64,000 bases of DNA from Mugil cephalus (Eukaryota > Chordata > Actinopteri > Mugiliformes > Mugilidae): positions 22,365,001 through 22,429,000 of the forward strand of contig NC_061779.1 of NCBI RefSeq assembly GCF_022458985.1, written 5' to 3'. The stretch's first letter is position 1, and every line of letters starts with the position of its first letter. The position numbers and the translations under genes were made by a program. Positions 798-60,610 of the stretch are shown piece by piece. The notes beneath the pieces are model-generated. The model worked only from the letters and a program-made list of their open reading frames with translations, was not told where the DNA came from and did not search any database.

Positions 798-3700
798 TCA
801 CAGGAATCTGATTCCTGCTCCAAACTGGAACCCATCACATATCCTGAAAGGAAAGCAGAAAATTTTAAATTGCTATCAAGCCAAACCCAAAATTTGCAGA
901 GGGCGGGAGCAAATGCATTAATACCTAATGCATTTGCTCCCACAACATGTCACCTGAAAGAGTCACTATAATGTTAGCATGCTTGTGCTTATTGTTTGAA
1001 GTGAATTACTTTACAAGGTTCACAGAAAAAGCTGGTACATTGCTGAGTATTTACTGTGCTTGGTCTGTGCTGTTTTTTTTTGTTGTTATTTCTTCACTTA
1101 ACTAACAACAACTAACATTCAGCATCTATATAAAATGATGTTTTGAGTTAACAAATGTATCTTAAATTAGATTCAACTTTATTGTCACTGCATATGTACA
1201 GGTACACACATTTTAAATGTAGTTTAAATGTGTTTTAAGTAAATCTAACAAGTGAAATTCAAAAAAAAAAAATCTACCTAAATCAACCAGCCTTACCTGT
1301 CTCCACTCTGGACTCCCATGGGAATGCAGTAATTAAGCTCCAACCTGGCAATATTCCCCAAACGCAGCACAATACCCAATCCGTATGACCAACGGATGCA
1401 TTCTGCCAATTTCTTCAAATGAGCATGTGGCCCCTCACCTGACGAAAACACAAGAGCACATGTGACCTCAGTGAAACAGAAAATAAGGGAAACTGCAAAT
1501 GTATGCATAAAAATTTGAGCTCTAATTTGCTCAAAGACAAAACCATGAAATTCATACTTGGATAAGATAAAAGTTTCAACTGATCCTATCGTAATTATAA
1601 CATCTTAGTCTTAAATGTCAAGATCGGATCAGTAACACACAAATAACACAGGAGTTAATTTTATTTTGGCTCCAACTGCTCACCATAGTTGAGGTTACAA
1701 AGGTTTCCAGCATTGAGGAAGAAGTGGGTCCTGAAGAGGTCACCGAAGCCTCCCCGGCCTGGCCTGAAGGGTAGAGGGGTGTATAGGTGGAGGCCTCCAG
1801 CCCAGTAGGCCTCTCCTCCCAGGTAGTCACCTGCCATACCAGTAAAGTCAGCGCACTATTCTTCAATCAACAATCAAACTTTAGTGTGGTTAGCAAGCAC
1901 CTAAAAAAAGAAAATCTAAAGTCTCACCTTCACTCTGTGGGCCCATACTATACATACTGAATCCCCGGACACTGGTGGGGCCACCAAGGTAGAACCTACC
2001 AAAATAAATAAATAAATAAATATAACACAAAGAAAAGTTATGAGCTGTCTGTGAATCGCTTAGTTTTAATAACATAGTTTTTATGGCTACAGCTTGTCTA
2101 GTTAAGAGGTTTTTAATCAGTTAGGTATGTTGCAGAGTTAAAGCAGCGTCATGGAGGCACATTGTGTTAGGCAAACAGGTGAATACTGATGCTCTGCAGA
2201 CACGTGGAAGCAAGTTGCTGTAGTTTGGACAGACAAATTCATAATAGTAATATGAATATTTCACATTGTATTTGTCCCAAAATGGGGAAAATTATTTTTC
2301 TGCATTTGACCCATTCATTTGTTGACACAGTAGTGTGTACACTTGGAGCAGTAGGCTGCCACTTGTCTACTGCGCAGGGCGCAGATTGAGGGTTGGGCAT
2401 GAATTTGGCCACCTCACCCACAGTCAGCACTGTCAGCAACAGAGGCAGAAAAGTTTGATCCAATAATATCAATAAAGGATGTGATACAAATACTTTAAGA
2501 TTCAGTGTGACATAACATGTGTAGGGGGTTATGCTGTCGAAGGCATTTATGCCTGTGTTTTGGTGTGTCTGTATCGTTATGCAAGTACGCCACTGAAACA
2601 CTGGGCGGCGACTGGCCAGCTGCGTTGGGTTTCACTTCACACTTCACAAAGTGCCGACTCAAACTGAGTGGCTCACGTTGGAGTTGAACCAAATAAATGC
2701 AGATTAGCTGTCACCGCAGCACAGAAAATAGAGAAGTCGTCTGAGAAGACGGTGTGTATGAGCCTGGACAAAAGAGAACTGTCTTTGGTCACCTGGCTGA
2801 CGAATCACTTGAACAAGGAAATGCATTTCAGACCAATCACAGATGTCACAGTCCATGTCACCACGATGTGTAGTTACACTTTTGGTGCATGTCAGGTTAT
2901 GGCATAGGGTCATACGTAGGAAGTAGGAAGATGCTGTAGCTATGCTGACTAATTGAGGCAGTATGTTAAATCGTGCATTTGACATAATAATGTTATTGGC
3001 CTTTTGCACTGTATTTCCATACCTGTCTGCTATACTTGTTGGCCTGTCACCAATGGGTAGAAGCAAACCGCCCCACAGTGAGGCAGAAAGCACCTGGAGG
3101 AAAAAGTCAAAGCATTCAGTGAAGCTGACTTGTGCAAATCATGACAGTAATAGACATAAGGAAAATGTGTGCCTGAGTAAATAATGACTGTACCATTCAT
3201 TTGTTTCTCATTTAGTTCAATCTTCTGCCAACAGGCCATTTTCACAAATGACTCAGTGCAATGCATAACCGGAAGTCTTTATTTGGCATTTAAGTATTGC
3301 ACATTAATAATATAACACTTGTGTTCTTGCCTGGTAACACAACTTAAAGTAAGCCTGTGTAAGTGCCTTCCACTCCAAAATTTGCAAAATGGTTGAAATG
3401 TAGAACTCTTAATCTCACCGAGTCCCAGAAGAGTGCTTTGTTGAGCTGGATCTCAAAGTCCTCCTTTAGGAAACTGGCATCTCCCCCAGTGTATCCAGCG
3501 AGTTCCTGCACAAACAGAAAACATTAGACTTGTGTACAAGATGAGAGATGTTGTTTTTAGATCTGGAAAGGAACAACAAACCTGATGGATCTTCAACAGA
3601 CCACCTTTCCTCGGGAGGATGGAGGAGTTCCTCGTGTCGATGACCATCGCATGCTGAAAAACAAAATTACTCTATTAACAAACCTGCTGTAAATATCGTT

Positions 3701-13729: not shown

Positions 13730-16700
13730 ATGGAGGAAAAGCAGTTTACATCACTGACGGTTCCCACGGATTATTTTCAGCAGTGGTGAGTTGGTGCTGG
13801 AGGTGGCAGGAGGTCTCGGGAACTTCTCATGTTATCTCGTCATTTTCATGCATGGTGGAGGAAGAATATAATCATCCGACACATGACATTACCCACTCAA
13901 TATTCAACATTGTAGCAAGTGATAGTGTAAATATGAAGGATTGTAAATATACTGTCAAAAGAGAATGCAATAGGTTTAATTTTTCTCAATGGGAATACAG
14001 GATCATCAATTAGTTATGATGGAAGTTATGGACCATCAACATTTGGTAATTACACAATGTGATTATCATGTTTTATTGTCTTTACCATAGAGATAGTTTG
14101 AAAATTTTAAAGGGACATTTAAATTAAATACAAAAGTGTTCATGTACGTTATCCAGCAGTTATTACACCATTATTTGCTACAGGCCTTATTAAAGCACCT
14201 GCAGTAGCTTGTAGTCGGATCGAATGAATGGTTGTAGCTGTAAAATAAACACATGCTTGATTTCGCATCATCGTATTTGCACAGTCACAAAGTCCTGTTA
14301 AATGTTCGTATACCTTCATTCCATTCTGGTCAAGTAAGTTTCAAAGTGAATATTTGTGGGTGAAGTGAGTGTTTGATGCAATACGCTCAAAAAAAAGAAA
14401 GAAAAAGAAAATAGTTTAGGAGTCAGATTTGTTTAAAAAGCAGTAAACAAAATGCAGAGAATGTGAACCGTTGTGTACCAGTGCATGTATGTTTGTGAGG
14501 ATTGTGTCTTGTGTGCGTAAGTTTTCCTCACCTCGCTTCCTTGCACACCTCACTGAGCCTCATTTCTCCTCGTGTCTGGGCCCTTCTTTCTCTCACCCTC
14601 TTCATTTTTTTTTCTTTCTTTCTTTCCTCACTTTATCAGGTACCAGTCCAGCCAGCAGCACCCCGAGGCGCAGCATGTGATGTCATATCACAACATGGGC
14701 CATTACACGGAGGGTCCTGCGGATGAGCCCGTCATGACGGAGCTGTCTGTCCACAGAGATCCGCCTGTTTACCAGGAGCCTTTTTACCAGAACTACCCTC
14801 AGTTCCCAAATCACTACCAGGAGCAGAACTGGCAGCAGAATTTCAGGGAGCAGCAGCAGCAGCAGCAACAACAACAACAGCAGCAGCAGCAGTATCCTCC
14901 AGTCCTGCACCAGCCACAGCATCAACATACGACGCAGCAGCCGGAGCCAAGTGTTCATCACCAGCTTCAGCCCCCTGGTCCCCCTCAAGGTAATGGAGGA
15001 GTTAATCAATCAGAGTAGTTTTCGTCAAGATGGTTTAATCTTTAATCTTACCTGTTTTCTTTGAGCTCATTAGGAAGAGTGTCATGTTGTCTTATTCTGT
15101 TTGAGAGCAGGCAAATATCCTCAAAACTCATTGCATTAAAACCAGCTTGATGTATAAATATCCCTACGAGTGTATTGTCTGATTTCCTGTCGTTTCCCGT
15201 CAGGATCTGCTAGTTTTGTGTTGTACATTTAGTTACAATATGAAATAGAACTTTCCTAAAAGTACTGTGTTCTGTGGACTGCACTAAAGACTTCTTCTTG
15301 CTGTTTAAAAGAATAAAATACACATCACTCATCTGTTTCCGCCTTGTCCTTTGAGCCGCCGTGACACCTTAACGAGTCTCCCCTCTTGGTCGCAGCCGTG
15401 ACACCAGTGAAGAAGAAGCGAGGTCGACCTCCCAAACAGCAGACTGAGGATGGTGAGACACAGGAGGAGGAGGACGAGGCCGAGGCAGCCAAAAAAGCCA
15501 AGAGGGCTCTCAACCGCTTCAACGGCATGTCGGTGGCCGAAGTCATGGCCAAAACTCTGCCAGATGTTATAACCTACAATCTCGACATATTGATAGTGAG
15601 TTATTTACTGGGAATCTCTTAAGAATGTATAGATTTTTCTTTGTGATTTTTTTTATTTGTAATATGGTTTAGGTTTGAGGAACAAAAAAAAAAAAAATGC
15701 AGTTTTTACATATGTTGTCATGGAAACTGCTCTGTTTTTTCCCCCCTCAGATTGGAATTAACCCAGGACTATTGTCAGCCTACAAAGGACACCATTATCC
15801 AAACCCAGGAAATCACTTCTGTATGTTGAAATTCAATTTCATTATTGACTACAGGGAATACCTGGCAGCACTGTCTTTTCATTACTTCTCCCCTGTCGCA
15901 CCCAGCATGGCTCCATCATTACAAATGTGTGACATAACGTTGTACCTTTCAGTCTGATGAGGTTCAGCCATAAAAAATATGTCTTGGGTTTTAATATTAT
16001 ACGTATCTGTGTACATATCATGTAGAATCAGTGAAGCAAGCTGACCACAGGTAGCACAGTATTCATGAGAACCATCGTTGAGATACTGCTTTTTAGAATA
16101 AGGGCCAGAGATCGTTGAAATCCACACTTTGTTCTTCTGAAATATTACTTTGTACTTTTTTTCTGTGATTTATATCATCTTTTGCATGTATGATGTTCAT
16201 GTTTTATTTAGTATTTGTGGTTAGGCAGGCTGATTCTTGTTCTTTTTGTTTCATCAGCTCACTAAAACCAAGCTTGCACTGGTGTCTGTGCTGACATATT
16301 CCTGTCGATTCAGTGCAGCTTGAGTCTGGACCGTGAGGAAAGTTTAATCTCCACCTATCGTTGTGTGTGCAGGGAAATGTCTGTTTCTGTCTGGTCTGAC
16401 TGACCAACAGCTCAACTACACGCACGACCAGAGTCTGCCTGAGCAATACAGCATCGGCTTCACCAACATGGTGGAAAGGACCACACCCGGCAGCAAGGAC
16501 CTCTCCAGGTAGTAAAAACAAACACTCAATGTGCTGTAAGAAGTAAAAAAATTAGACTTAGGATTTATTTATGGGGCAAGTTCCAACTGATATAATGAAT
16601 ATATACTTCTTCACCAACTGCATAGTCCTACAACCAAGGTGAACAATTTTGAACAAATTTAACTCCACAGATGACGTGTATCCCCACGGGGCTGTTACTG

Positions 16701-18286
16701 ATCTGATCACCACATAAACACATTTAGTTGTTTTATTTTGCGAACTGAAGCCACCGTAGACTACGTCCACACCAGTATCTCTGTCTTTGAGAGTCTTTAT
16801 TTCCGTTCTAACAATCCTGAAAACACATATTTTGAATCGGTCATTGAGGCTGATCAGGGCTGAAATGGGTATTCAAAAGTTTTCTCACAGCTTCAGAAGG
16901 ACCCCCATGGTCGTCCCCACCAGTCACTGGCTGTTTCAAGCCTCACCAGAAAATATAATAGTGCCACTGGAATCTTTGCAAATAACCTGAATATTAGCGT
17001 GGATCCTGTGCCTGTACAGTAAGCATTAGTTGCATGATAAAATGCAGAACAACTCACAGACAATGAGGGCATGAACCCCCTGTAACTATTTATTCATATC
17101 TATATACATTTACATATATATCCATTAAATTAACTCGTGGTAATGGTTCCGTAAAATATTCACATAATAAGAGGAAGAGTATAAGTCAGGGAAGGATACG
17201 CAGAGACTGACAAATCCAGCCAGGAAGCAAACGTCTGTGTCATTGTCTCCAAAAGTCCAACCTGTCCAGACTAAAACTAAAGTGAGGACGGACGGTTTCT
17301 CAGTCTTAAACGGGTCCTAAAGAATAGCATGGATGCTAAATAAATGCTAAAATAAACTTTTGTATCATAAGTGAGCACATAAGTGAGGCCCTGGCCTCTG
17401 CCTGAATCCCAGATCTACTGTATTGTAATACAACGCATCACATGAAAAAAAGAAAGAACAAATTGTTTGCTGTTGAACTTTTTTTTGAATCCTTTTTTTG
17501 TCCCAGTAAGGAGATTCGTGAAGGAGGACGACAGTTACTTGACAAGCTGCAGAAATACAAGCCATTAATAGCAGCTTTTAATGGAAAAGGTAAAAATAAT
17601 TCCTTCAAACATGACACCACTGGATTTCTGTCTGTTCATTGATAAAAGCTCAGCGTGCATTTGGCGGTGACAGTGTTTGTGCATTTTGCAGGTATTTATG
17701 AAATCTTCTGCAAAGAAACCTTTGGTGTGAAGGCCAAGAACCTCGAGTTTGGTCTGCAGCCCTACAAAATCCCAGAGACCGAAACAGTATGTGGAGACAG
17801 AAACTGTGTTGCGTTTGAACCGCGCTCCATTCTGTGGCAAAAATCCTGACAGGGTATTTCCTTTTTCTTAGGTGTGCTACTTAATGCCATCTTCCAGCCC
17901 CCGCTGTGCCCAGTTTCCCCGCGCGCAAGATAAGGTGCATTTCTATATCAAGCTGAAGGAACTGCGAGACCAGATGAAAGGCGTGATACCTCCACAGGAG
18001 GTGCAAGAGACTGAGTACTCCTTCGACCTTCAGCTCGCTAAAGGTAAATAACGTACTCCTATGCAGTCCGACTGACACACCAGGCGTCAGTCGGCTTTTC
18101 CTTGTGTGGCTCAGCCGAACATAAGGATTCGCCTGTCATTGACATTTTACAGTTTTGATCTCTGATGAACTCACTGCTGATGATTTTGATGATTTTGCAG
18201 AGGATGCTAAGAGGATTTCAATCAAAGAGGAGCAGTTGGACCCGGAGTATGAAAGCTGTAGTGGGACGATGCAAGGCAAAGAGTGA
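13730..18286 (+). CDS. tdg: Thymine-DNA glycosylase, tandem copy 1
   Basis: Mismatch-specific uracil/thymine glycosylase; the family removes T or U opposite G, and 5-formyl- and 5-carboxylcytosine, in repair and active demethylation. Nine coding exons join in phase: 13730-13785, 14640-14989, 15396-15595, 15751-15820, 16373-16508, 17507-17589, 17692-17786, 17872-18043 and 18201-18286 (415 residues). The N-terminal tail has 14 glutamines at about 90-103 and an AT-hook (KKKRGRPPK, 141-149). Catalytic motif GINPG has its Asn at 206. [28 protein letters not shown] and the Arg of the penetrating loop (SSPRCAQ) are present. Relative to human there is Ala145 to Ser and Ala274 to Pro (numbers counted from Asn140). 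The sumoylation-type site IKEE is kept (Lys396), but the protein stops 20 residues later and lacks the QWMTQSF tail of copy 2. Confidence 0.95.
14851..14892 (+). repeat. tdg: CAG/CAA repeat encoding polyglutamine
   Basis: Fourteen glutamine codons inside coding exon 2 of tdg copy 1: five CAG, four CAA, five CAG. The CAA interruption should slow repeat-length change. Copy 2 has no equivalent run. Confidence 0.95.
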
Positions 18287-20638
18287 GAAGAGAAAAGAAG
18301 AGGCCGATCTGCTGTAGCACTCAGGTAGCTGCACTGTGATTCAGTTTAATTGAATGGAAATGAAACGGGAGAGTCTGATGTTTCAGCAGCCAAACCACTG
18401 TTCTGATGTTCTAAAGTGATTTGGAAGTCTGATTTAGTCGTTCATATATAACACAGACATAAGTTGAACACATGAGAAACTTTAAAATATTTTAGGGTTG
18501 GTCTATAGCAGTGCACTGACTATAAATCCATCATTATTGTGGTCTCTTGCAGAAAAGGACATTGTAGGCTGGTCAGCAGACAACATCACGTGGAACCACC
18601 ACACCTGGGCAAATCTGCTCAAAAGATACCAAATATCAGCTGAACCAGTAGCACAACACACCAGTGAGGGGAAAAACTAACTCCACAACAGAAGAGAGGC
18701 CGCGCTGTTCCTGAAGCATCACAATGTTACGCACAAGAGAGAAAGTGCCCACGTTTTCTACCACTCGGACTGTGCATGTTTTCTTGGTGTTATTTTTATC
18801 ACAATGTATTTATTGCATTTTGTATGATACGTGTTTCCAGTGACTTATTTTGTATTTTGATAGAATGGTATTTTATGATTTATGGGCTGTATAAATGGAT
18901 AATGGTACTCTGGAATTTCTAATCTGTAAGAACAGAGTTATTAAATCTCTTCTAAAGCTGACGTGTTTACTGTCTCATTGTTTGAGTCGTTCATGTGAAG
19001 CTGCAATGACCTAAGAAAGGACACACGGACACTCACCGGTACTCTGAAAGAATGATTGATGCTTCTTCACCAATAGAAACTAAGTTTTATAATGAAGGAT
19101 TGATTTGTTAGTTGGATGGTTCCGTTATCAACGCTTGGTACATACAGAAAACCACAATTTCGTGAACTGAAATAGTAATAACACAGGGTTGTGGGTGCAT
19201 AGTTGTAGTCTGCACTGGGTTCTATCACTACAAATCATTTAGATATTTGAGAGCAATAATGAATCTCGTTTTCATAAGTGAGGGGTTCACGGTGCAGTTA
19301 TATTTACCCTATCAGAAGTACATGAACAAATGTCCTGTAATGTTGTTATTGACTAACTTGTGACTAACTTTGTGAAGCCTCTTGTTTCTAACGTTGACTT
19401 AATAATGAAAGAAGAAACGCGATCAATAAAACTGGCCCATTTTGAACCCAGTGTTGAAAAATTTAACCCACTTATTACTTTTATTATCCATATTTTGTTT
19501 ATTCTGTTCAAATTCACAAAAGAAGATTTATATTATTGTTACCTTAATCTGTATAACAAAAGTTGTAATCTTTTATTCTTATTCTTGTAGTCACCGGTCA
19601 AATTAAAAACTAAAAAAAACTACCCTACCAATTCAATACTTAAAACCCAACGATCAGCCAATAGAAAACAACCTCACTGAGTTTAAAAGTCGAGCAGCTC
19701 GTACCAATGTTAAAACGGGTGCCTGTCTCTTTTTATGTGTTTGTGGTTTCCTGGCGCAAGTTTAGGTTTTCAGCATAGTCTTTAAACTGTGTATTTTTTA
19801 TTTAGTCAAAAATATATTCAGTGGATGAATATATGTTTTATTGAGTGATTCTTCATGATTGTAGTCAAAGAGGGTTTTCTTAATCCCCCTACGCCTTAGA
19901 CTTGAGCTCTCCCGGTGTCAGAGTTGACCGGCAGGGTTGTCATGTCTTTGTTGCCTCTGTAGCATTTTAATTTTGTGGGTAGAAGTGCGACGTAGATGGA
20001 AAAATAACAGTTATCTTCGGAGAAGAAACTCGCTGTAATCTTGACCCCCAAAAGGTAAGTTTGAGGCTAAAAAGTGCTGTAAATTACGAACAGTGTGTTT
20101 GTTGGAAATCTCAGTGGAAGGGAAACCATTCATCCGTGCTAAGGTAGCTTAGCAGCTAGCTGATGGCTAACATTAGCTGTAGTTGTGGCACGGGCTGTGA
20201 GGAGATGTTAAAAAAAAAGCTATTCGCGTTATCTTCTTGAAACGCGTATTTGAAATGAGATGAGTCTACATCTCGTACCCCAGGCTGCCCCCACTTTGTT
20301 AAAATCAAGCAGCATAGTTTACATCCGTGTTAGCACAGCCGTGGCAGAAGAGAAACGTTTTAGCAGGTGCATTAATATTAATGTATTCGCAGAAAATTAT
20401 CATTGACACACTTTACCAATCGACATATAGTAAATGAAGTTCGCCGTTAGTATGTCATTGTCATCCGAGTTACCCTTTGTTTTGTTTATGTTATGCTTCA
20501 TGTTTTGTTTCCTCTTCAATGCGCTGGCACATGCGTTCATTTTCACACACTTAAATGCCAAAGCACATGTCCATCACCCAGCTATGTGACCTCAACATGC
20601 ATATTGATTTATTTGATAAAGTTAAAACCACCCGTAAG
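18287..20638. other. tdg copy 1 3' UTR, spacer and tdg copy 2 promoter
   Basis: A variant poly(A) signal ATTAAA at 18940-18945 probably ends tdg copy 1. An acceptor-like TCTCTTGCAG before 18551 could feed an alternative last exon, but the frame there matches nothing known. GC-richer sequence near 19900-20060 ends in CAAAAG|GTAAGT, a good donor at 20054/20055, and probably is the untranslated first exon of tdg copy 2. No other gene is seen. Confidence 0.5.
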
Positions 20639-23600
20639 ATGGAAGAAAAGCTGAATGGATCACTGCCTGTTGTCTCCCCGGAGTATCTTCATCAGTGGTG
20701 AGTGTTCGTCCTCACCGCAGCGGCCAAACACGAGTCACAGATCAGATCTGCAGACCTCTGAATGGCAAAGTGCGATGAAATGAAATGAAAGCATGTGCAT
20801 CCATTTACTCTTACACGTGAAGCCTTCATTCTCTAACCATTTGTTCGCCGCGAGTGTTGGTTTTCCATGCCTTATAAAAAATAAGTTATACATTACTCCG
20901 CCAATAGTTGAGTGATCTGTATATATTCCTTTTTGAATCATAGATTATCAGAGGGTCTAAACCTTCAGAATATAATTGGTATATACCATAAAACAGTTGC
21001 CAGATTATCCAGTCATCTCGTTATAGTTATAGCTATAACTCAGTGTAGACTTGCGACAACATAACTGCAGTATGCTCTATTTTCATAAAGATAAATATGC
21101 TCTTATTAATGTTGACCTAGTTGTAAAGAGGTGTTGATTCAAATTTAGGGGTATTTTATGCCTGTAGGTTTGGAGGGTATTGAATTATATTGTTTTATGC
21201 TAAAGACTAAAGTCTGTTTCCCATGTTTAGTGTAACCTTATTGGCTTAAAACTCCACTAACAGCTCCCACAAATGCTGTATCACAAATAAGTTGGACATA
21301 ATAACTGGGTTCTTCTAATTGAAGCTGCTCTTTATAAGGGATCAACAGATTCTCATCACTTATAGGAGAAAGTTGTTTTGATTGATTTATTAATTAATTA
21401 TGCATCACTGCTCATTCAAATGTGGAAAATAGTTACATAAACACAAGAAATTACATTGTTTGCATAACCTTCCAATAAAACATTAACCCCACAACACAAC
21501 ACAAGGCACTGCACTGATTGTTGTATTCGTTCTTACCCATGCTCAGACTTTCAATATTCTTTTCACCCCAGGGTCCAGTCTGCCCGGCAGTTTCAGGCTC
21601 TCCAGGCCCAATATTCAAACTTCGACCCGAACCATCAGTTTCACTACCCAGAGAATCAGCCTGGAGAGGCAGCCATGGCGAACATGGCTAATCCAGAACC
21701 CGAGATGGATCAGATGGAGCCGGCCAACTTGACAAAACGTACTGTGATGCCTTCTGAATGACACATCATAACTGTTTAGAGAATTCACTATTTCTGGGTT
21801 GTGAGCAAGATGACTCGGTCATGAAGTGTTAATTAAATGTCAGTAGTAGTAACAGCTAATGAAAATATTGTAACACGGCATGACACTGGTATTCTTGCTA
21901 CAAAGTACACTTTTGGAGGAATGTGTATATATTTAGCATAGTGAAATTATTTTCAGTTGGACTGTAGTTTGCACAAAAGTCTTATATATGTGAGATGGTG
22001 AAACATGGAATTCATTTGAGTGATATTAAGGCAGTATAACGTATAGAAAGAGTCTCCCACAGCAGTTAAGCAAAGCTCCCAGTGACTCTGCCCAGTCGAG
22101 GTTAAAACACTTCTTATTTCTCTTTGTAGCCCCACCTAAAAAGAGAGGCAGAGCAGCACAACCTAAGGAACCGCAGGCACCCAAACCACCAAAAGTCCCA
22201 AAGGCACCAAAGGCGCCAAAGCCACCCAAGCCACCAAAAGTGCCGAAGGCACCAAAGCCTCCGAAAGACCCAAACGCACCTAAAGCAAAACCAGGACCGA
22301 AGCCCAAGAAGGGTGCAGAGGCTCAGGCTGACGGCAAACAGGAGAAGATTGATGAGAGCTTCAAAAAGGTGAAGAGGAAAGTGGACCGCTTCAAAGGAAT
22401 GTCAGAGGAAGAGGTCATGAAAAAGACTCTACCAGACCTGCTAGACTACAACCTGGACTATGTCATCGTAAGATTACATTTTATGCTGATCAGCAGTGAA
22501 GCCAGAGGCTGTGATATTTGAATGCCTTTAACAAGCATTTGCTTTCAGATTGGTATCAATCCTGGGTTGATGGCAGCTTTCATTGGACGATGGTTTCCTG
22601 GTCCTGGAAATCATTTTTGTAAGTTAAACGCATTAATTCTGATTTGTGTAATTGTACAATATGGGCCCTGTGCTGCTAAAAGTGTTATTATTGTAATGGT
22701 TTTAAGGCATGTGTCACTTAAAGTGCTACAGTCTAATACAACTGCTTTGCAATAAATCCTGCTATAACTTTATGCAGGTTATGTGTTCATTGAATTGTAC
22801 ATTATGTTATACATTACATTATGGAGGATGGAGGATGTAGTTGTGGCGCTGTTGAAATGCAACATGAACTAAGCATTCGAGCCTGAAGGTGCGGTTTATT
22901 GCAGGATTTGGAGTCCATTCATTCTGGGCAAATTTATTTAATAAAGTGTTGGTTCAGTGTACATGTAATTGTTTGACCAGCTTTTATCTTGATTTCAGGG
23001 AAATGCTTGTTTCTTTCTGGATTTACTGAGGAGCAGCTGAACCACATGCACGACACCACCCTTCCTGGAAAGTACAAAATGGGCTTCACCAACATGGTGG
23101 CCCGGGCTACACCGGGGAGCAAAGACCTCAGCAGGTATTATAGACTCCTGGGAAAATTAAACCATGCATCGTTAATTTGGGCCGAAGTAGGGGGAAAATA
23201 TAATAACTGAGCGTAGATTTCATGTTTTTTTGCCACAAGGTTTTTGTTGAAATACTATTGTGTAACGATATTTATTCTGTTTTGTTCTCACCAGTAAAGA
23301 GTTGCGTGAAGGCGGCAAAATTCTTGTAGAGAAGCTGAAGAAGTACAGGCCTCTCATTGCTGTGTTCAATGGAAAATGTAAGCTATTCTCGGCTAATGAG
23401 CAACAATTACAACAAAACCGCTATGTGAAATAAAGCTATACCTTTCTGTTTTTTTTTCCACAGGCATCTATGAAATGTTCTGCAGAGAGCTGTTTGGCAA
23501 AAAGCCACAAAAACTTGAATTTGGTCTGCAGCCACACAAAATCCCCGACTGTGACGTGGTGAGAACTCAAATCTGCTCATTTTAAAGCGATCATTAGACA

Positions 23601-26095
23601 CTATAGATATGTCAAGTGTACAATTCTGTTGAAACAGGTTCTTGTAAAAACAAAATAAGTGGTGAATCATGTCAGAGCAGCTGTGAAACACTGAGGGCTT
23701 CTCCCATGCGTGAAGCCATTCTTTTGTTGATTCGTATGCTGTGAAGCTATTCGTGATTCCAGCTTCACTGATCTGGAGATCTAGCTAAAGAACAGGTACC
23801 CCTGAGCTCATTGCTGTGACCACTGGCTTCACTCTGAGCGTGGTGGTTATTTTGCTGCGTGCTGTTTAGCTTACGGCAACGTTTAGCCAGGTTTGGATGT
23901 GTTTACCACCAGAATAGGGTTACATCTTGCCGTCCTGCCCCACTGTCCAGACAGATGAAGAACAGACAATTGACACATGTTACGTGACTGGTACTCGCCA
24001 GAAAGAGCTGCAGCTCAGCACTTATGGTTAAGTTTGGTACACTTAACGATTGTCTTCCCTGTGTTGCATTTTATTTGTAGTCTGCATCTGAGCAATATCT
24101 TTCAACAGTGAGATGCTGCTGATGGTTTGTGAGCTCTTTGTGGCCTGTGGATCGAACAGATGCAAGAAAAAATAGTCTTGTATAAGAAATTTTACAAGAA
24201 TAGTTGAGATTTATTTGTAGTCAATCAAAGTCGCTTCAGGTGAAGACTGGTGTTTATTACCTTTAATGTGTCACATAGGTTTACAGGCATTACATATGTT
24301 GTCATTTTTAAAATAATGAGGCAAAGGTTCTGATATGATTTACCCTCTCAGCTAACAGGGGTATTCACTCTTTTAATGCCCACTACATGGATGCTCTTTG
24401 ATCCGGAGTCATCACATCGCTCTTCTTCTGAAAATACAAAGTACAATCTATGATTAGTATTAGTTAAATGCCAGCACTGACTCTGCTTTTATTTCTGACA
24501 TGTTCCTACATACAAACTTTCATAACATAAGGCCTGAAAAAGATTTACATAGACTGACCTCAAACTAAATGTGAAGGCTGCCCCTGTTATGTTAATGGAC
24601 GTGATTGCTACATTACATCCAAGCAAAGCTTCAAAAACATTTATCTAACTTACTGGTTAAAAAAAAAAAAAAGAGACGAACGGCACATGAGAAAATGTGA
24701 ATTTTCTGAACCAGCTGTGGATTCTGCCATTAAAGGACTGACCAGTTGTTTCCTCTATACAGGCTCTGTATCTGATGCCTTCGTCCAGTGCTCGCTGTGC
24801 TCAGTTCCCTCGTGCTCAGGACAAAGTCCACTTCTACATCAAACTGAGGGAGCTCAGAGATCAGCTGAAGGGCGTCCGAAGAGTCACTGAGATTGAGGAG
24901 GTTAACTACTCGTTTGACCTTAGTTTGGCTAAAGGTAAGCGGGGCCACGGCTAACTGAGCTTTGTTTAAATTCATGTTATACAGCCTTTATTTATCCGTT
25001 TTACTCACTCAAGGTAGACAATAGCATTACAGGACTATGTTTTTTTTTGTTTGTTTGTTTTTTTAATTTATAGGTGCCATTTGACATTAAAACCTTGTCA
25101 TTAGTTCGGGATGTAAATCCAGGTTTTGTCCTGTTTGGCATTTAGTTTAATCTTCCCTTTTTACATCAACAGAGGATGCTAAGAGGATGGCAATAAAGGA
25201 GGAGCAGTACGATCCTGGTTATGAAGATGCCTATGGCGGAGAATATGTAGCAAGAGGACCCGAAGGAGGCCAGACCGAAGGCCAGACCAACGGTCACTGT
25301 ACATTTTCAACTCCTGAAAACACAGGTAACCACAAACGGTGTTGCAAGTGAGGCCAAGCCTGACTGGAGCACGAGCACCAAAACGCACAGCGAAATGGAA
25401 ACTAATGAAATGCAATAAAAATGTCAGGTCCTGCTGGACTCATATTGTCAGCTAAAATAACTTCTCAGATGGGATAATAACATACTGACATCCATGTACG
25501 TTCAGCTGGTGCTAAAGCTAACAAGTATTTATCAGAGGAAATCAGTACTTCATTGTCCTATATGCTGAACTTCCAAGCATCAAATATTCACATTTTACAC
25601 TTTATCGCATTTTATCTATTATTTTGAATTATTTAAAGAGTGAAACTGTTTGCAATGATAAATACATTCACAATCTTAACAGATGCAGAGTGTTGTCATA
25701 GACTGCACAATCTAATTTGGTTCACATTGCGATAAATGGTTAAATGTGCAGGGTTTCATCAACATGTTACTGAAATCAGCATGAACGTGGTGCTCATCCA
25801 CTGAGGCTCCTGTGTTTCAGTCAGAAACGTCTGGTTTGTTGCTCAGCTGGATCGATCAACATGTTGTTTGGTTGTGTGGAGCCATCAAAACAGACTTTCC
25901 TTTCAACGTTGTTAGCGTCACATCAGCATATTAACACTGCTTCTGTTTGCGCATTCTTTGTCTTCAGAAGGAGCACAGGAGGCGAGCACGTCACAGACGG
26001 CAGAAGGCCAGCTCCCAGACGGACAGTGGATGACCCAGTCCTTTGCAGATCAGATTCCAGACATAAGTGGCGGACCAAAAGACGGCAGCATATGA
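20639..26095 (+). CDS. tdg: Thymine-DNA glycosylase, tandem copy 2
   Basis: Paralogue of the preceding gene with the same order of intron phases. Ten coding exons: 20639-20697, 21572-21738, 22130-22467, 22549-22618, 22999-23134, 23295-23377, 23464-23558, 24763-24934, 25173-25325 and 25968-26095 (466 residues). Residues about 86-137 form a Lys/Pro/Ala-rich tail (repeats such as PKAPKPPK) resembling linker-histone tails. The AT-hook of copy 1 is reduced to KKRGRAA. Catalytic Asn is 192 in IGINPGL. The next motif reads [16 protein letters not shown] where human has [16 protein letters not shown], so human His150-His151-Tyr152 are Arg-Trp-Phe. [16 protein letters not shown] and [16 protein letters not shown] are kept, as is the sumoylation-type IKEE (Lys382). 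The C-terminus keeps [13 protein letters not shown], close to human [13 protein letters not shown]. The upstream half has no detectable break. Confidence 0.95.
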
Positions 26096-30300: not shown

Positions 30301-31584
30301 TCAAACTTATCGACTTACCACTCCACGGTACGAAGGTGGGATGAAACCACAGTAAACGGGGAAAAAGCAGCTGCACATGAGAACCTGCAAAGGTACAAAA
30401 ATCAAGCCTGACCTCCAGAAGTGAGAAACTGGAGCTTCAGCTCCTGGCATTTTGCTGAACATCAGCGCAGATGATGCGAAGGAACCTGACGTTCACCTGG
30501 ATCAGCTCCTCCCTGCTGTCGAACTCTGACACCAAAACGTTCTCCCCGTCGACCAGTCTGGTGAGGGACACGCAGAGCTTCCCGGAGGCTCGGAGGTGGG
30601 CGTCTTCTGGGAGCTTGACCAGCAGGGAGTCCCGCACGGTCCGCAGCAGACTGAAGGTCGGGTGGAAAACTCCCAGAGTGTGTTTTCTGGCCTCTTTCGC
30701 CGTAGTCAGAACATCAACACATAACTCTTCTGAGGAGAGCAATACAACAAATCAGCGTCTGTGAGGAAGTCAGCCGGGTCACGGCATATCTAACACGAAG
30801 CTATTAAGGTTGTAACATTATCCAAGTACCTGGAAAACAGACACACAAATAACGTTTATCAGAACGTCTTTTAATGTTGTTTGATTATCATCGCTGTGCT
30901 TCAGCGTTTTTACTCTCATTCATTGTCTTGTCTCTGAATACTACATGACCTATGGAATTTGCCCCTCACTATTGCATGAGCTGTGTTGTTTACTCATTCT
31001 ATCATACACGGCACTTGTTTTGAGATAACATATCCTTGACCTCTATGAATAACCAAGTGTGCGACAGAGAAACACCTGTTGTGACATGTCGGATAAAAGT
31101 AGATTAAAGTATTGGATATATTAGCAGTTTAATAGCATAACTGCCTAAGTCATATTTGAACGTTTTCAGAAAACAAGAAAAAAAAACTGTTTTTAGCAAG
31201 CGCATTTTTTGTTTGTTTTTGTTTTTATTGATATTGTAAAAGAAAGATCAGTTTTCAGGATTTTCTTATTGTAGCACTATATAAGAAGAAGACACACTGC
31301 TTTTTATTATCATGGGGAAATCAACCTAAAAACTTTATTAGGTTAATAAGTTCTACAATATGAAGCCAGAGTGACTCACCAATAGGAATCCCCACACACA
31401 GAGCTGCGGCCACAAGACAACCCGAAGACGCCCCGCAGATTTTAGAGGCGCCGTGAACCAGCCACGGGACCCGCTCCAAGATACAGCTCAGAGCTCCCAC
31501 ATAGTAAACACTCCTGAATCCGCAGCCTGCAAAAGAGAGGTTCCACTCCTCGGCCCCGGGAACCATCTTCTCTGACGTTCCCAT
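27392..31584 (-). CDS. Patatin-like lipase, PNPLA2/3 type, downstream tandem copy with divergent C-terminus
   Basis: Family members hydrolyse or transacylate neutral lipids at lipid droplets. Coding exons: 31380-31584, 30497-30729, 30319-30384, 28637-28846, 28491-28551, 28200-28406, 27908-28049, then 27707-27789 and 27392-27498 (last two less certain). The oxyanion motif SFAGCGF, nucleophile motif GASSG and Asp motif YMDGALSNN are intact. The first ATG (31584) gives Ser53 and Asp172; an internal ATG at 31566 with a better Kozak context gives Ser47 and Asp166, as in human PNPLA2/3. Exon 7 keeps the hydrophobic [11 protein letters not shown] stretch. The next exon, homologous to the [16 protein letters not shown] exon of the other copy, is shortened and read out of its ancestral frame, so the tail after about residue 375 is novel or degenerate. 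The donor after exon 4 (GAG|GTCGGT) is weak. Likely active but possibly decaying. Confidence 0.8.
28910..30148 (-). mobile_element. Tc1-like DNA transposon relic with transposase remains
   Basis: Minus-strand open pieces between about 29200 and 29753 are Tc1 transposase: KILWSDESS (first Asp), NNAPCHTS (second Asp changed to Asn) and [16 protein letters not shown] (Glu region). They lie in different frames, so the gene is dead. A right end at about 30113-30148 reads GGTGTCTGAAAACTTTTTTC and then TACCACTGTATG, like a Tc1 terminal repeat. A degraded counterpart may start near 28910 (CAGGTAGACCAAAAAAG). The element sits in intron 3 of the downstream patatin-like gene, same orientation. Confidence 0.75.
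29965..30000. repeat. Perfect 16-bp inverted repeat (hairpin)
   Basis: TGGTACCAGTGATCCA at 29965-29980 and its exact reverse complement at 29985-30000 are separated by TTAG. It lies inside the Tc1 relic, about 110-150 bases from its right terminus. Confidence 0.9.
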
Positions 31585-32886
31585 CAACCGCGAGACTGAC
31601 GAAAGCTCGAAACCGAATCTCTAACCCTGTCTCCCTTCCTATTATCTGGTTCCCTTCAGCACTGAGTCCACCTGTTGTTTTCTCCACTACAACCAAGTAC
31701 TTTGGATGGTGATGACGTAGCATTACACAACATACTAGGCTCAAACGTCACGGTTCAAAATAGAAAACAAACTGGGGACCCCTCACTAAGACCAGCTGAA
31801 TGACATGTGACTCCATTTTCATAACACACTTAACCAGCTCTCTTCTGTTTACAGCAGTGTGGGAGGGACAAGAGGGGCATGGGGACAGCAATAATTTCTG
31901 ATTGGTTCTTGGTCATGGCTGGTTATGGAGAAGTAGGCAGCGTGCCACAGCAAACCAGCCAGTGTTGAATTAGTGAAAGTCAATAAATGAAATGAATAAA
32001 AAAGGTTACATTTAGTACATGCCTGATACTCCTCCCATAATCTTGCTATAGAGCAGAGAAATACAACATTCATTGAAAACGACTCCTTACTCTCTTACTC
32101 TTACAAGTAAATTGACTTACTGTACACTTGTTATTTATATCCCAGTTAGTGTCCTGATTTTGTTTTATTTGTATGCTTGACTAATTACGTCTTTATTTTT
32201 CACAGCTCTCTGAAACCTGAACACTGTGTCATTTCTGTTACACCAACATTTCTTTATGTCTGTCAGAATCAGACAAGAGTCTGGAACCTAGCCCAAGTCT
32301 CACTGGGTGAGAGGCAGGAAACAAAGATCACTTACACTCACAAGAACACCGACAGCACATAGAATCACCATTATCCATTTAACTTAATAGTTGCATTTTA
32401 CTGTTCGGCCACTTGGGGACACCACAGGAAGTCTACCTAAAAATCAAATAATTTGCTTCATTCTGTTCAGCCCCACCTCTAATTCAGACTGCTGTGTCAT
32501 ACGTCAGTTTTTTGAAAATAACTATGTGCTGAAAGTTGGAACAGGACATGAAATGATCTGTGCAGCTGGGGAAAAGGGCAGAGCCAGGTGATGATTCTCT
32601 GAGGGTTTGTCGTGTTGAGCTACACCCCACACATCACATATGATCCCTTAAAACATGCAACAAAGCACTGATCAGTTCAACTTTAATGTGGGAAGATGCT
32701 TATTTTACTTTTCAAAAAGTCTATTAAAAGAAACAAATACATGGTACAAGAAGAAACAACTTTTTATTGGACACAGATGCTCATATCTGGTATTTTCATT
32801 CGCATCCATTTATTCAATATTTTCAATTAAGTGCAAAATAGACTGAACGCAGAAATGGACGCTGACTAATTCTTTGGCTTGAGGTC
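31585..32886. other. Spacer between the tandem patatin-like genes
   Basis: This 1.3-kb stretch holds the promoter of the downstream copy and the 3' UTR of the upstream copy. A minus-strand AATAAA at 32763-32768 is a fair poly(A) candidate for the upstream copy. No additional exon or repeat was recognised. Confidence 0.45.
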
Positions 32887-35800: not shown

Positions 35801-38181
35801 CAACATTAATAAAACAGTTTCCCAGTGCTGTGCTGTGCAGTCAGGAACAAGGACTCACCTCAGGCTGTGGGGGGAAGAAGGTGCTGGTCACTCTGTACAA
35901 GTTCTCCGAGTTGACCTGGATGCTGACATTGTTGAAGCGCACCTCGTGGAAGTTCAGGACGCTCCCCCTGGGGCAGATGTCACTCTCCCCAGCGTACGCT
36001 GAGAAGGTGATAGTGTTTCTCTGGTGGCAGCGTGGCAGGTTGTCGCTGACGGCACCGTCCACGTAGTGCTGAGCGGATGGGGAAACAGGTTAACGCGACT
36101 CAACAAGTCGTACACACCAGGTCTTGTGAAAATGTAATCATTTGCATGATGTGTGCAGTTTCTAATTATTTGTTACATAAAATCCTTATCTGAGGAGTTC
36201 TGAGGGTAACAGAATGTTGTTAGTGGGGGGTCTTGGTGTCCTATGGGTTGAGGGGAGGGGCCTCTGTGGTCATTCTACAGATACTTCATCAGTTTGGGAT
36301 CTAGTGAATTTGGAGGCCAGGTCAACCAACCCCCCTAAACCATTTGTGTGTGCGTGTGTGTCAGGCTGCATCCTGCTGGGACTGGGTGCTGCCATCAAGA
36401 GGTGTCATTGCTATGGGGGTGGGGAGGCCTGGTTGTGAATGTTGTGGCTGATCGGTGTTCCCAACACAAGAAATTTTAAAATGGAATATTTGTGCACATA
36501 TAAATGTCACTCATAGCTGTAAACTGAACTAAAATAACTGTTGATATTTTGTTATTAGTTAAGTATATGCTGCATGTATTGTATACTGAAATACATTAAA
36601 TTAATTTAGTGTTTCTCTTTTTTTTTTTTTGGTTGACTTTTAATTAAAAAATATATTACATGCACTGTATGGATTTATAGGAAAGATTAAGTACATAAGG
36701 TCTGCATTGGATGTTTGCCTCTTGAAAGCAGCCAGGATGAATCTTCAAGGTGAACCCTTCATTATAACATGTACTCAGTTATGATTCATTTGTGCCTTCA
36801 TCATTTCACTGTCAGCTGCTGTGTTGTTGTTTCAGGCTCCCTGGTTCACTCACCACTCCGCGGTACGTTGGTGGAATAACTCCACAGTAGAAAGGCACGA
36901 AGCAGCTGCACACAAGGGCCTGGAAAAGACAGAGATCGTCGCATATTAGCTGCAGAAACAAATGTGTTCATCCTGATAAATACAACATTATGCTTTTTGA
37001 ATAGGTATGTTGGGTTATCAGCCTGATAACTGAGAAATGAGACAGCCTCGCTGTAAACCCTACGTCCATGAGCTCCTCTCTGCTGTTGAACTCCGACACC
37101 AACACGTTCTTCCCATCAGACACTCTGGTCAGGGACACGCAGAGCTTCCCAGAGGCTCGAACATGAGCGTCTTCTGGGAGCTGCGTCAGCAGAGACTCCC
37201 GCACGGACCCGAGCAAGCTGAACGCTGGGTGCAGGGGCCCCAGTTTGTGCTTCCTGGCGTCTTTGGCCATGGCCATCAAATCCGCACAGCATTTTTCTGC
37301 AAATAGTAATAACACACAGGATCAAACTACAGAATTACAGTACTGCAGTTGACAGCAAGTAACTTAACTTATTTCCCTTTTGCGTACAAGTCAGCTGAAA
37401 AACGGACTTTGAAAATAATTACTCAATTTATGAGTGTCTCTTCTACAGCGTAAGAGATTCTGTCACTGATGCAAGTTAGATTACTGTCTAATCTTATCAT
37501 GTACAGCAGGAGGCAAAAGGTAAAAATATGCCAACATTTACTTTTACTGACAGAGAAGTCTTTTTTTTTTTCAATTCACAGAAATAATCCTGAAGGTGTT
37601 CATATAAAACACAATGCCTAGTGGTACATTGATGAAATAAGGAAATGTATGAGGCTGATATCGGAGGAAGCAGTGATCATATCTAATTAAGTGCACTCAA
37701 TCTGTCATAGCAGGGACACAAGAAACACCTGGTGGAAACACAATTACTAAATCAATATCTTCATCTTAGTGAGGCGAGATTTATCAAGGTGCACTGAAGA
37801 ATGGTGCTGTAGATCTAAGCCGGTTTCCACGTTAAAAAAAAAACAAAAAAAAAAACATATGATTTAAAACTTAAATCATATGTTCGTACTGTTCTTTCGA
37901 AAAAGTGCATTTTCTTTTTCACGAGGCAGCTTTTCAAAATGACACATTTTCTGAACGGAGGTTCACCCAGTCAAGATGAGACGCAACAACTCACCCAGGG
38001 GCATCCCGACGGTGAGAATAGTGGCCATCAGAGCTCCTGCTGAGGCTCCGTAAATTTTCGAAGCGTCTTGAATGAAGCGAGGGAAGCGTTCGAGGATACA
38101 GCTGGCGGCACCAACATAGTACATCCCCATGAAACCGCATCCCGCAAAGGAGATGCTCCACTCTTTCTTCAAATCAAGCAT
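32887..38181 (-). CDS. Patatin-like phospholipase, PNPLA2/3 type, upstream tandem copy
   Basis: Probable triglyceride lipase/transacylase of the adiponutrin-ATGL group, acting at lipid droplets. Nine coding exons in phase: 37995-38181, 37064-37296, 36854-36919, 35859-36068, 35533-35593, 35150-35341, 34950-35046, 34117-34224 and 32887-33193 (486 residues; human PNPLA3 481, PNPLA2 504). [14 protein letters not shown] forms the oxyanion loop, Ser47 lies in GASAG and Asp166 in YVDGAVSDN, the positions used in human PNPLA2 and PNPLA3. Conserved [20 protein letters not shown] and [13 protein letters not shown] follow. The C-terminal half keeps [15 protein letters not shown]. The last exon is Ser/Pro/Thr-rich. 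Its place near samm50 fits pnpla3, but I cannot separate PNPLA2, 3 and 5 by eye. Nothing looks broken. Confidence 0.92.
33665..33775 (+). repeat. LINE 3'-end fragment
   Basis: Contains AAGAATCTCATTGTACAGGG, then GTGACAATAAACTCTTTGAA and a repeated tail GAATCTTGGATCTT. This is the usual 3' end of teleost CR1/L2-like non-LTR elements. It lies in the last intron of the upstream patatin-like gene. Family not assigned. Confidence 0.5.
34540..34803 (+). repeat. LINE 3'-end fragment
   Basis: The segment with TCTGGAGGAACGTCCTCTCA and the ending GAAAATACAAACCTCTTTGA resembles a very common teleost non-LTR retroelement 3' end (consensus with 'CTGGAGGAACG...TGACAATAAA...CTTGACTT'). It is in the intron between the exons at 34117-34224 and 34950-35046. 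Family not assigned. Confidence 0.5.
35433..35500 (-). repeat. LINE 3'-tail fragment
   Basis: On the minus strand it reads AAATTTCCCTTTTGAGGATC, then AGTAAAAGTAAG and TCTTATCTTGTCTTATC. This is like the fish LINE end 'AATTTCCTCTTGGGGATCAATAAAGTATCTATC'. Intronic. Confidence 0.5.
36190..36458 (-). mobile_element. Tc1/mariner relic (GATCAGCC-end family)
   Basis: Its 5' terminal repeat, read on the minus strand, is CACCGATCAGCCACAACATT. The interior includes CTCCAAATTCACTAGATCCC, a decayed version of the transposase stretch encoding WPPNSPDLNP. It aligns by eye with the fragment at 39335-39562 in the opposite orientation. About 270 bases remain. It lies in the intron between the exons at 36854-36919 and 35859-36068. 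Confidence 0.65.
37854..37884. repeat. AT-rich perfect hairpin, 14-bp arms
   Basis: AACATATGATTTAA is followed by a 3-base loop AAC and its exact reverse complement TTAAATCATATGTT. It directly follows an A-rich tract and lies in intron 1 of the upstream patatin-like gene. It may be a foldback repeat end; no family is recognised. Confidence 0.85.
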
Positions 38182-38478
38182 GTTTCCTCGGGTGTATCTC
38201 ACTCCGGCAGCAGTCCAGGAGTAACAGAGACCCCTCGCGGAACTATATGGACGTCATGGAGTGCTGATGTATACGAAGTGCCACCTTCACATGAGCATCC
38301 AAAGGTGACTCTCTTGCGAAAGTTTGTACATTTACAAACTCCTATTGGCTGGTTTATGTCACATGACCGACACACCAGAGTAGCGGCCACTACTAGTTAG
38401 TTTGGTTAAAACCTCTGAGTGGGCGAGGTTGTGTTAAAGCCTTAAAGTTGGCATTTGGACACGTGCTTTTGATTAAAA
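38182..38478. promoter_or_regulatory. Bidirectional promoter: patatin-like gene / 2OG dioxygenase
   Basis: Only 297 bases separate the start codons of two divergent genes, so both promoters must sit here or extend into each other's first exons. No TATA box is obvious. Co-regulation is inferred from the arrangement only. Confidence 0.55.

Positions 38479-60512: not shown

Positions 60513-60610
<98 letters not shown>

What the first reader, a model, noticed from the sequence alone, without database searches (positions are those of the whole stretch)
15751..22618. Tandem glycosylases differ at the active-site residues that set base choice
Both copies keep the catalytic Asn of GINPG. Next to it, copy 2 reads [15 protein letters not shown] where human TDG reads [15 protein letters not shown], so human His150-His151-Tyr152 become Arg-Trp-Phe. 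Copy 1 keeps GHHY but has Ala145 to Ser, plus Ala274 to Pro beside the DNA-penetrating Arg275. Human numbers are counted from Asn140. Ala145 and His151 are, as I recall, the two residues reported to hold down activity on G:T pairs, and Tyr152 lines the base pocket. The duplicates may therefore have split the family's jobs (T versus U, or 5fC/5caC).
Basis: partly seen in the sequence, partly recalled or inferred. Interest (0 to 1): 0.75.

Follow-up and report, generated by a model that had tools for sequence, protein, structure and literature searches.

The report
Duplicated fish TDG, one remodelled pocket
A fish genome carries the known side-by-side pair of thymine DNA glycosylase genes, and one of them has an unusual base pocket that could change which damaged or demethylation bases it removes, though nothing here shows that it does.

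Summary
The residue readings are correct. Two open TDG genes lie in tandem on the + strand (exons found at 14640-18286 and 21572-26095); no third was found in this 635-Mb genome. Copy 2 has His150-His151-Tyr152 changed to Arg-Trp-Phe, plus Y147F and K148I; copy 1 has A145S and A274P.

The pair is not new: its neighbours match the published teleost tdga/tdgb tandem pair (PMC6976628, passages), copy 2 on the pik3c2a side.

'Split jobs' is half supported. A145S was made in human TDG without changing specificity, and Ala274 contacts DNA by its main chain, so copy 1 should choose bases like human TDG. Only copy 2, chiefly H151W, is a real candidate for altered choice.

No other fish TDG could be fetched, so whether RWF is fixed in tdgb is untested.

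The parts
14640..14989 (+). copy 1 (tdga by position) N-terminal exon, Gln-rich, with a run of 14 Gln; first ATG exon not located
   Evidence: opens in frame into the next exon
15396..15595 (+). copy 1 exon with KKKRGRPPK (AT-hook-like, recalled motif) and an acidic stretch just before the core
15751..15820 (+). copy 1 exon with [22 protein letters not shown] (Asn140, Ser145, His150-His151-Tyr152)
16373..16508 (+). copy 1 exon with Asn191 ([16 protein letters not shown])
17507..17589 (+). copy 1 exon with Asn230; C233G at its 3' junction
17692..17786 (+). copy 1 exon
17872..18043 (+). copy 1 exon with the DNA-penetrating loop [10 protein letters not shown] (A274P, Arg275 kept)
18201..18286 (+). 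copy 1 last exon: IKEE (SUMO-type site, recalled motif) then stop; no counterpart of copy 2's last exon found in the window at E up to 1
21572..21738 (+). copy 2 (tdgb by position) N-terminal exon; first ATG exon not located
22130..22467 (+). copy 2 exon with Lys/Pro repeats and [19 protein letters not shown] before the core
22549..22618 (+). copy 2 exon with [22 protein letters not shown] (Asn140, Ala145, Arg150-Trp151-Phe152)
22999..23134 (+). copy 2 exon with Asn191 ([16 protein letters not shown])
23295..23377 (+). copy 2 exon with Asn230
23464..23558 (+). copy 2 exon
24763..24934 (+). copy 2 exon with [10 protein letters not shown] (Ala274, Arg275)
25173..25325 (+). copy 2 exon with IKEE (SUMO-type site, recalled motif)
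25968..26095 (+). copy 2 last exon ([14 protein letters not shown]), no counterpart found for copy 1

Best explanation
This is the old teleost tdga-tdgb tandem pair, both copies open and under net purifying selection. Both should work as TDG does: the Arg275 loop flips the base out, the base enters the pocket, and Asn140 positions the water that cuts the glycosidic bond. Copy 1 (tdga by position) keeps a human-like pocket and should show human-like base choice, but with a weaker hold on DNA because the stretch just before its core is acidic and its C-terminal tail is short. Copy 2 (tdgb by position) keeps the catalytic set, the basic pre-core stretch and the long tail, but Trp151 replaces a His that lines the pocket, so it should be active with a shifted balance among T, U and oxidised C. 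If jobs are split, the split lies in copy 2's pocket plus the tails, not in both pockets. Shown: gene models, residues, charges, neighbours, two genes found. Inferred: every statement on activity.
For: Open spliced frames with equal core exon lengths 70/136/83/95/172. Whole-genome search with the copy 2 core: 10 of 11 matches lie in these two genes, the 11th has E 3.1. Gene order: an Omp85 (SAMM50-type) exon over the curated cut-off at window 1676-1834 on the - strand, one of two in the genome; EFCAB10 at 9.0 kb and nucleobindin at 46.6 kb; a PI3K Ras-binding exon 4.8 kb past the window end. Published order pik3c2a-tdgb-tdga-samm50 (PMC6976628, passages); stickleback list Pik3c2a, Tdg.1, Tdg.2, Nucb2b, Samm50 (PMC4880927, one passage). 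Core dN 0.22, dS 1.4 by LWL85. Asn140, Asn157, Asn191, Asn230, Ser271-273 and Arg275 kept in both. A145S neutral in human TDG. Human residues 82-110 raise G:T excision from 0.039 to 0.22 per min (PMC9800633, passages) and are needed to condense nucleosome arrays (PMC7969020, passages); the 26 residues before Phe111 carry net +6 in human, -4 in copy 1, +2 in copy 2.
Against: No activity, expression or structure was measured here. tdga/tdgb names rest on position, not on a tree. Splice sites were picked by hand. NG86 could not give a dS and YN00 failed, so dN/dS is rough. Copy 1 is not acidic throughout: the 39 residues of that exon before RFNGM, with KKKRGRPPK, have 10 Lys/Arg and 9 Asp/Glu. 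E. coli Mug has Pro-Phe at 151-152 and still cuts G:U and G:5caC, so loss of His151 need not change 5caC. Putting HHY back into copy 2 raises the family profile score by only 8.6 bits of 325. Liu et al. call the functional sites highly conserved in all tdg sequences they analysed.
Confidence: 0.62

Rival explanations
1. Division of labour by base: one copy serves T/U repair and the other 5fC/5caC demethylation, set by the pocket residues of both copies. (The rivals are not mutually exclusive.)
For: Mutations at Ala145 and His151 loosen human TDG. The His151 side chain contacts N4 of 5caC (PMC3488261), a contact Trp cannot make in the same way. Five copy-2-only changes cluster in residues 147-152.
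Against: A145S is neutral in human TDG. Asn191, essential for caC excision (PMC9800633), is kept in both copies. Mug lacks His151 yet cuts 5caC.
Confidence: 0.2
2. Expression split: the two enzymes do the same chemistry but are used in different tissues and stages; RWF drifted under relaxed constraint.
For: In trout testes tdga peaks in late spermatogenesis while tdgb does not change, and tdgb is high at the start of ontogenesis; in ovary all tdg copies behave alike (PMC6976628, passages). The same paper calls the functional sites highly conserved. The RWF triplet costs little under the family profile.
Against: In the 23 whole codons of the GINPG exon, 11 differ silently and 8 by replacement, and 5 of those 8 are the residues 147-152 of copy 2: the patch changed while the rest of the exon was held.
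Confidence: 0.3
3. Private oddity: RWF is a recent change of this species, an allele, or an assembly error.
For: No other fish TDG could be examined. No held paper text contains the three peptides searched, though alignments in figures are not text.
Against: The three codons differ from copy 1 by two, three and one bases inside an open frame with clean splice sites, which a sequencing slip would hardly give.
Confidence: 0.15

Closest known systems
Teleost tdga/tdgb (zebrafish tdg.1/tdg.2)
   Same: Side-by-side TDG pair with pik3c2a on one side and samm50 on the other
   Different: The passages seen report conserved functional sites and do not mention an R-W-F pocket or an acidic pre-core stretch; the alignment figure of that paper (S9) was not readable here, so this is no proof of absence
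Human TDG
   Same: Core identical at 142 (copy 1) and 138 (copy 2) of 187 residues; Asn140, Asn157, Asn191, Asn230, Arg275 kept
   Different: Copy 1: A145S, G154N, C233G, A274P, acidic pre-core stretch, short C tail. Copy 2: Y147F, K148I, H150R, H151W, Y152F, Lys/Pro repeats
E. coli Mug
   Same: Ser at 145 (as copy 1) and Phe at 152 (as copy 2)
   Different: Pro at 151, Lys in place of Asn191, no long tails; G:T activity not detected or extremely low

Membership tests
TDG/Mug family (UDG superfamily family 2, number recalled) | GINPG motif with catalytic Asn140 | tested here: met
   both copies
TDG/Mug family (UDG superfamily family 2, number recalled) | Homology over the whole core to solved TDG | tested here: met
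   copy 2 against human TDG chains, best E 3.5e-116; copy 1 core 142 of 187 identical to human without gaps
TDG/Mug family (UDG superfamily family 2, number recalled) | NCBIfam TDG model TIGR00584 at its curated cut-off | tested here: inconclusive
   E 5.8e-114 and 2.1e-118, but 381.1 and 395.7 bits lie under the cut-off 402.6; the scanned proteins lacked the N-terminal exon, and the human core alone passes with 420.7 against 324.0 and 324.7 for the fish cores
TDG/Mug family (UDG superfamily family 2, number recalled) | Penetrating loop with Arg275 | tested here: met
   SSSPRCAQ in copy 1, SSSARCAQ in copy 2
Vertebrate TDG | Asn157, Asn191 and Asn230 pocket residues | tested here: met
Vertebrate TDG | His151-Tyr152 in the pocket (as in human; not a feature of the wider family, Mug has Pro-Phe) | tested here: inconclusive
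   met in copy 1, not met in copy 2 (Trp-Phe)
Vertebrate TDG | Basic stretch just before the core (human 82-110) | tested here: inconclusive
   net charge of 26 residues: human +6, copy 2 +2, copy 1 -4
Teleost tdga/tdgb pair | Tandem position between pik3c2a and samm50 | tested here: met
   Omp85 exon at window 1676-1834, EFCAB10 and nucleobindin, PI3K Ras-binding exon past the window end, the weakest of six in the genome but over the cut-off. The large exon at 53.3 kb is called PIK3C2A from recall; Pfam and PDB searches of it found nothing
Teleost tdga/tdgb pair | Copies fall in the tdga and tdgb clades of a tree | not testable with these tools
   no other fish TDG sequence could be fetched
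TDG | Excises T, U, 5fC and 5caC opposite G | not testable with these tools
   needs enzyme assays

The most novel reading that the evidence does not exclude
In this fish's clade, or in all teleosts, tdgb carries a fixed tryptophan at pocket position 151 that re-tunes base choice, for example favouring U and 5fC over T and 5caC or relaxing the brake on thymine, while tdga keeps human-like choice but has lost the basic DNA-condensing stretch, so that fish run two TDGs that differ both in chemistry and in how they meet chromatin.
Probability: 0.25. Interest if true: 0.7.

Novelty: new variant of a known kind. Interest (0 to 1): 0.42.

Why it matters
In mammals one essential TDG must both repair G:T mismatches and finish TET-driven demethylation. 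A fish pair with one natural pocket variant and one natural tail variant would let those roles be taken apart genetically, and H151W would be a natural test of a residue that restrains TDG on normal thymine. It also shows that a summary such as 'functional sites are conserved' can hide changes in a pocket.

Tried and rejected
Relatives from outside. Two scans of viral contigs gave no relative (15 and 39 pattern matches, none confirmed). The one genome-contig scan gave 3 confirmed relatives among 90 pattern matches: two Brevibacterium proteins with Thr at 145 and A-P-F at 150-152, and a remote Omnitrophota protein that reads Ala at 145 and Q-Y-Y at 150-152 (two of the three were in the alignment).

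Papers. A text search for three peptides of this motif found 0 papers. Held papers on His151 or Ala145 mutants were sought; H151W by name with TDG found 0. The 2012 PNAS study of A145 and H151 (recalled) and Coey 2016 are not held. PMC4627079 held none of the residues searched, apart from a reference title.

Structure prediction was not tried, because the spliced proteins are not read letter for letter from the DNA, which that tool asks for. PDB searches with the exon taken for PIK3C2A and with a piece taken for SAMM50 found nothing.

Considered and rejected: pseudogene (frames and splice sites open); a third TDG copy (none found, though that search works exon by exon and scores only the best candidates, and the PF03167 search missed even the window's own TDG exons); mutually exclusive exons (the two GINPG exons lie in separate genes).
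Full report
What is there. The window lies in a 634.8-Mb genome of 24 contigs. Two TDG genes sit head to tail on the + strand. I rebuilt them exon by exon at hand-picked GT-AG sites: copy 1 from 14640 to 18286 (8 exons found) and copy 2 from 21572 to 26095 (9 exons found). The first ATG exon of neither copy was located. The five exons that code the core are 70, 136, 83, 95 and 172 bases in both copies, and the spliced frames stay open to a stop. A whole-genome search with the copy 2 core gave 11 matches: 10 are exons of these two genes and the last has E 3.1. No third TDG gene was found; the search works exon by exon and could miss a remote one.

The residue claims hold. Against the human chain, numbered from Asn140, copy 2 has Y147F, K148I, H150R, H151W and Y152F, and copy 1 has A145S and A274P. 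The RWF codons differ from copy 1 by two, three and one bases. The five changes in residues 147-152 are 5 of the 24 changes seen in copy 2 only, a cluster with a chance near 0.018 if sites were exchangeable, tested after it had been noticed. Counting all 49 copy-2 changes the test gives 0.44, and copy 1 has a cluster of its own at 302-307 (0.021). The clustering is therefore weak evidence; the point is which residues changed.

It is a known pair. Liu et al. [quoted passage not shown] Zebrafish tdg.1 and tdg.2 are named in a 2018 review that found no functional data on them (PMC5869911, passages). Here copy 1 faces an Omp85 (SAMM50-type) exon at window 1676-1834 and EFCAB10. Copy 2 faces patatin-like genes and nucleobindin and then a PI3K Ras-binding exon 4.8 kb past the window end; the large exon at 53.3 kb is called PIK3C2A from recall only (searches found nothing). 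A stickleback gene list has the same neighbours (PMC4880927, one passage). By position copy 1 is tdga and copy 2 tdgb; no tree was possible. Core dN 0.22 and dS 1.4 (LWL85) fit an old, constrained pair; NG86 gave no dS and YN00 failed, so the figure is rough.

What the changes should do. Copy 1: A145S was made in human TDG and did not affect specificity (PMC3488261, passages), in line with an older study cited there. Ala274 binds the orphan guanine by its main-chain carbonyl, which proline has too. So copy 1 should choose bases like human TDG. Copy 2: Tyr152 stacks on the base; Phe keeps the ring, and Mug has Phe there. His151 points into the pocket and its side chain contacts N4 of 5caC. H151A/Q and A145G let human TDG act on normal A:T sites (PMC5363859, one sentence), and A145G raises G:T activity in a CpG context from 0.067 to 9.0 per min (PMC10552547, table in passage). 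H151W with TDG was found in 0 held papers. So H151W is the change that could shift base choice, direction unknown. Against a simple loss of 5caC activity: Asn191, essential for caC excision, is kept, and Mug with Pro at 151 still cuts G:5caC. Under the TIGR00584 profile, putting HHY back gains copy 2 8.6 bits (324.7 to 333.3), His150 alone 4.4, His151 alone 3.5, Tyr152 alone 0.6, and Tyr147-Lys148 6.0; copy 1 gains 0.1 with Ala145 and 2.7 with Ala274.

The 26 residues before Phe111 carry net charge +6 in human TDG, +2 in copy 2 and -4 in copy 1. In human TDG, residues 82-110 raise G:T activity from 0.039 to 0.22 per min and G:U from 1.26 to 3.15 (PMC9800633, table in passage), and their basic side chains are needed to condense nucleosome arrays, with the C-terminal tail opposing this (PMC7969020, passages). 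Copy 2 has Lys/Pro repeats upstream (27 Lys/Arg against 8 Asp/Glu in the 85 residues of that exon before the core start) and a long tail. Copy 1 has a Gln-rich N-terminus and an early stop, and no counterpart of copy 2's last exon was found. It is not acidic throughout: with KKKRGRPPK, the 39 residues before RFNGM hold 10 basic and 9 acidic residues. Whatever the pockets do, the two proteins should meet chromatin differently. Trout data show that the two genes also differ in expression in testis and early embryo, though not in ovary.

Verdict. Observation confirmed; interpretation partly supported. The pair is known, copy 1's pocket changes are probably neutral, and copy 2's H151W plus the tail differences are what remains to be tested. 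Whether RWF is a fixed tdgb trait decides the interest, and the collections open here could not answer it.

Noticed in passing
own genome C8:13847354-13867972 (loci L001-L003): Three uracil-DNA-glycosylase-superfamily loci in tandem within about 20 kb, each match with one stop inside, as an intron would give. A frame of L002 matches solved uracil-DNA glycosylase (UNG-type) chains, best E 1.1e-42; L001 and L003 were not tested this way. Tandem UNG copies would be worth a look.
   Followed up: partly
14851-14892: Run of 14 Gln codons in the N-terminal exon of copy 1.
   Followed up: no
22165-22282: Lys/Pro repeats ([10 protein letters not shown] type) in copy 2; human TDG's disordered basic N-terminus has been likened to the tail of histone H1 (PMC7969020, passages).
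   Followed up: partly
31324-31620 and 37966-38253, - strand: Two frames with patatin-like phospholipase starts (PF01734), suggesting a tandem pair of PNPLA-like genes beside the TDG pair.
   Followed up: no
60518-60609: Perfect dinucleotide (CT/AG) repeat of about 92 bases.
   Followed up: no
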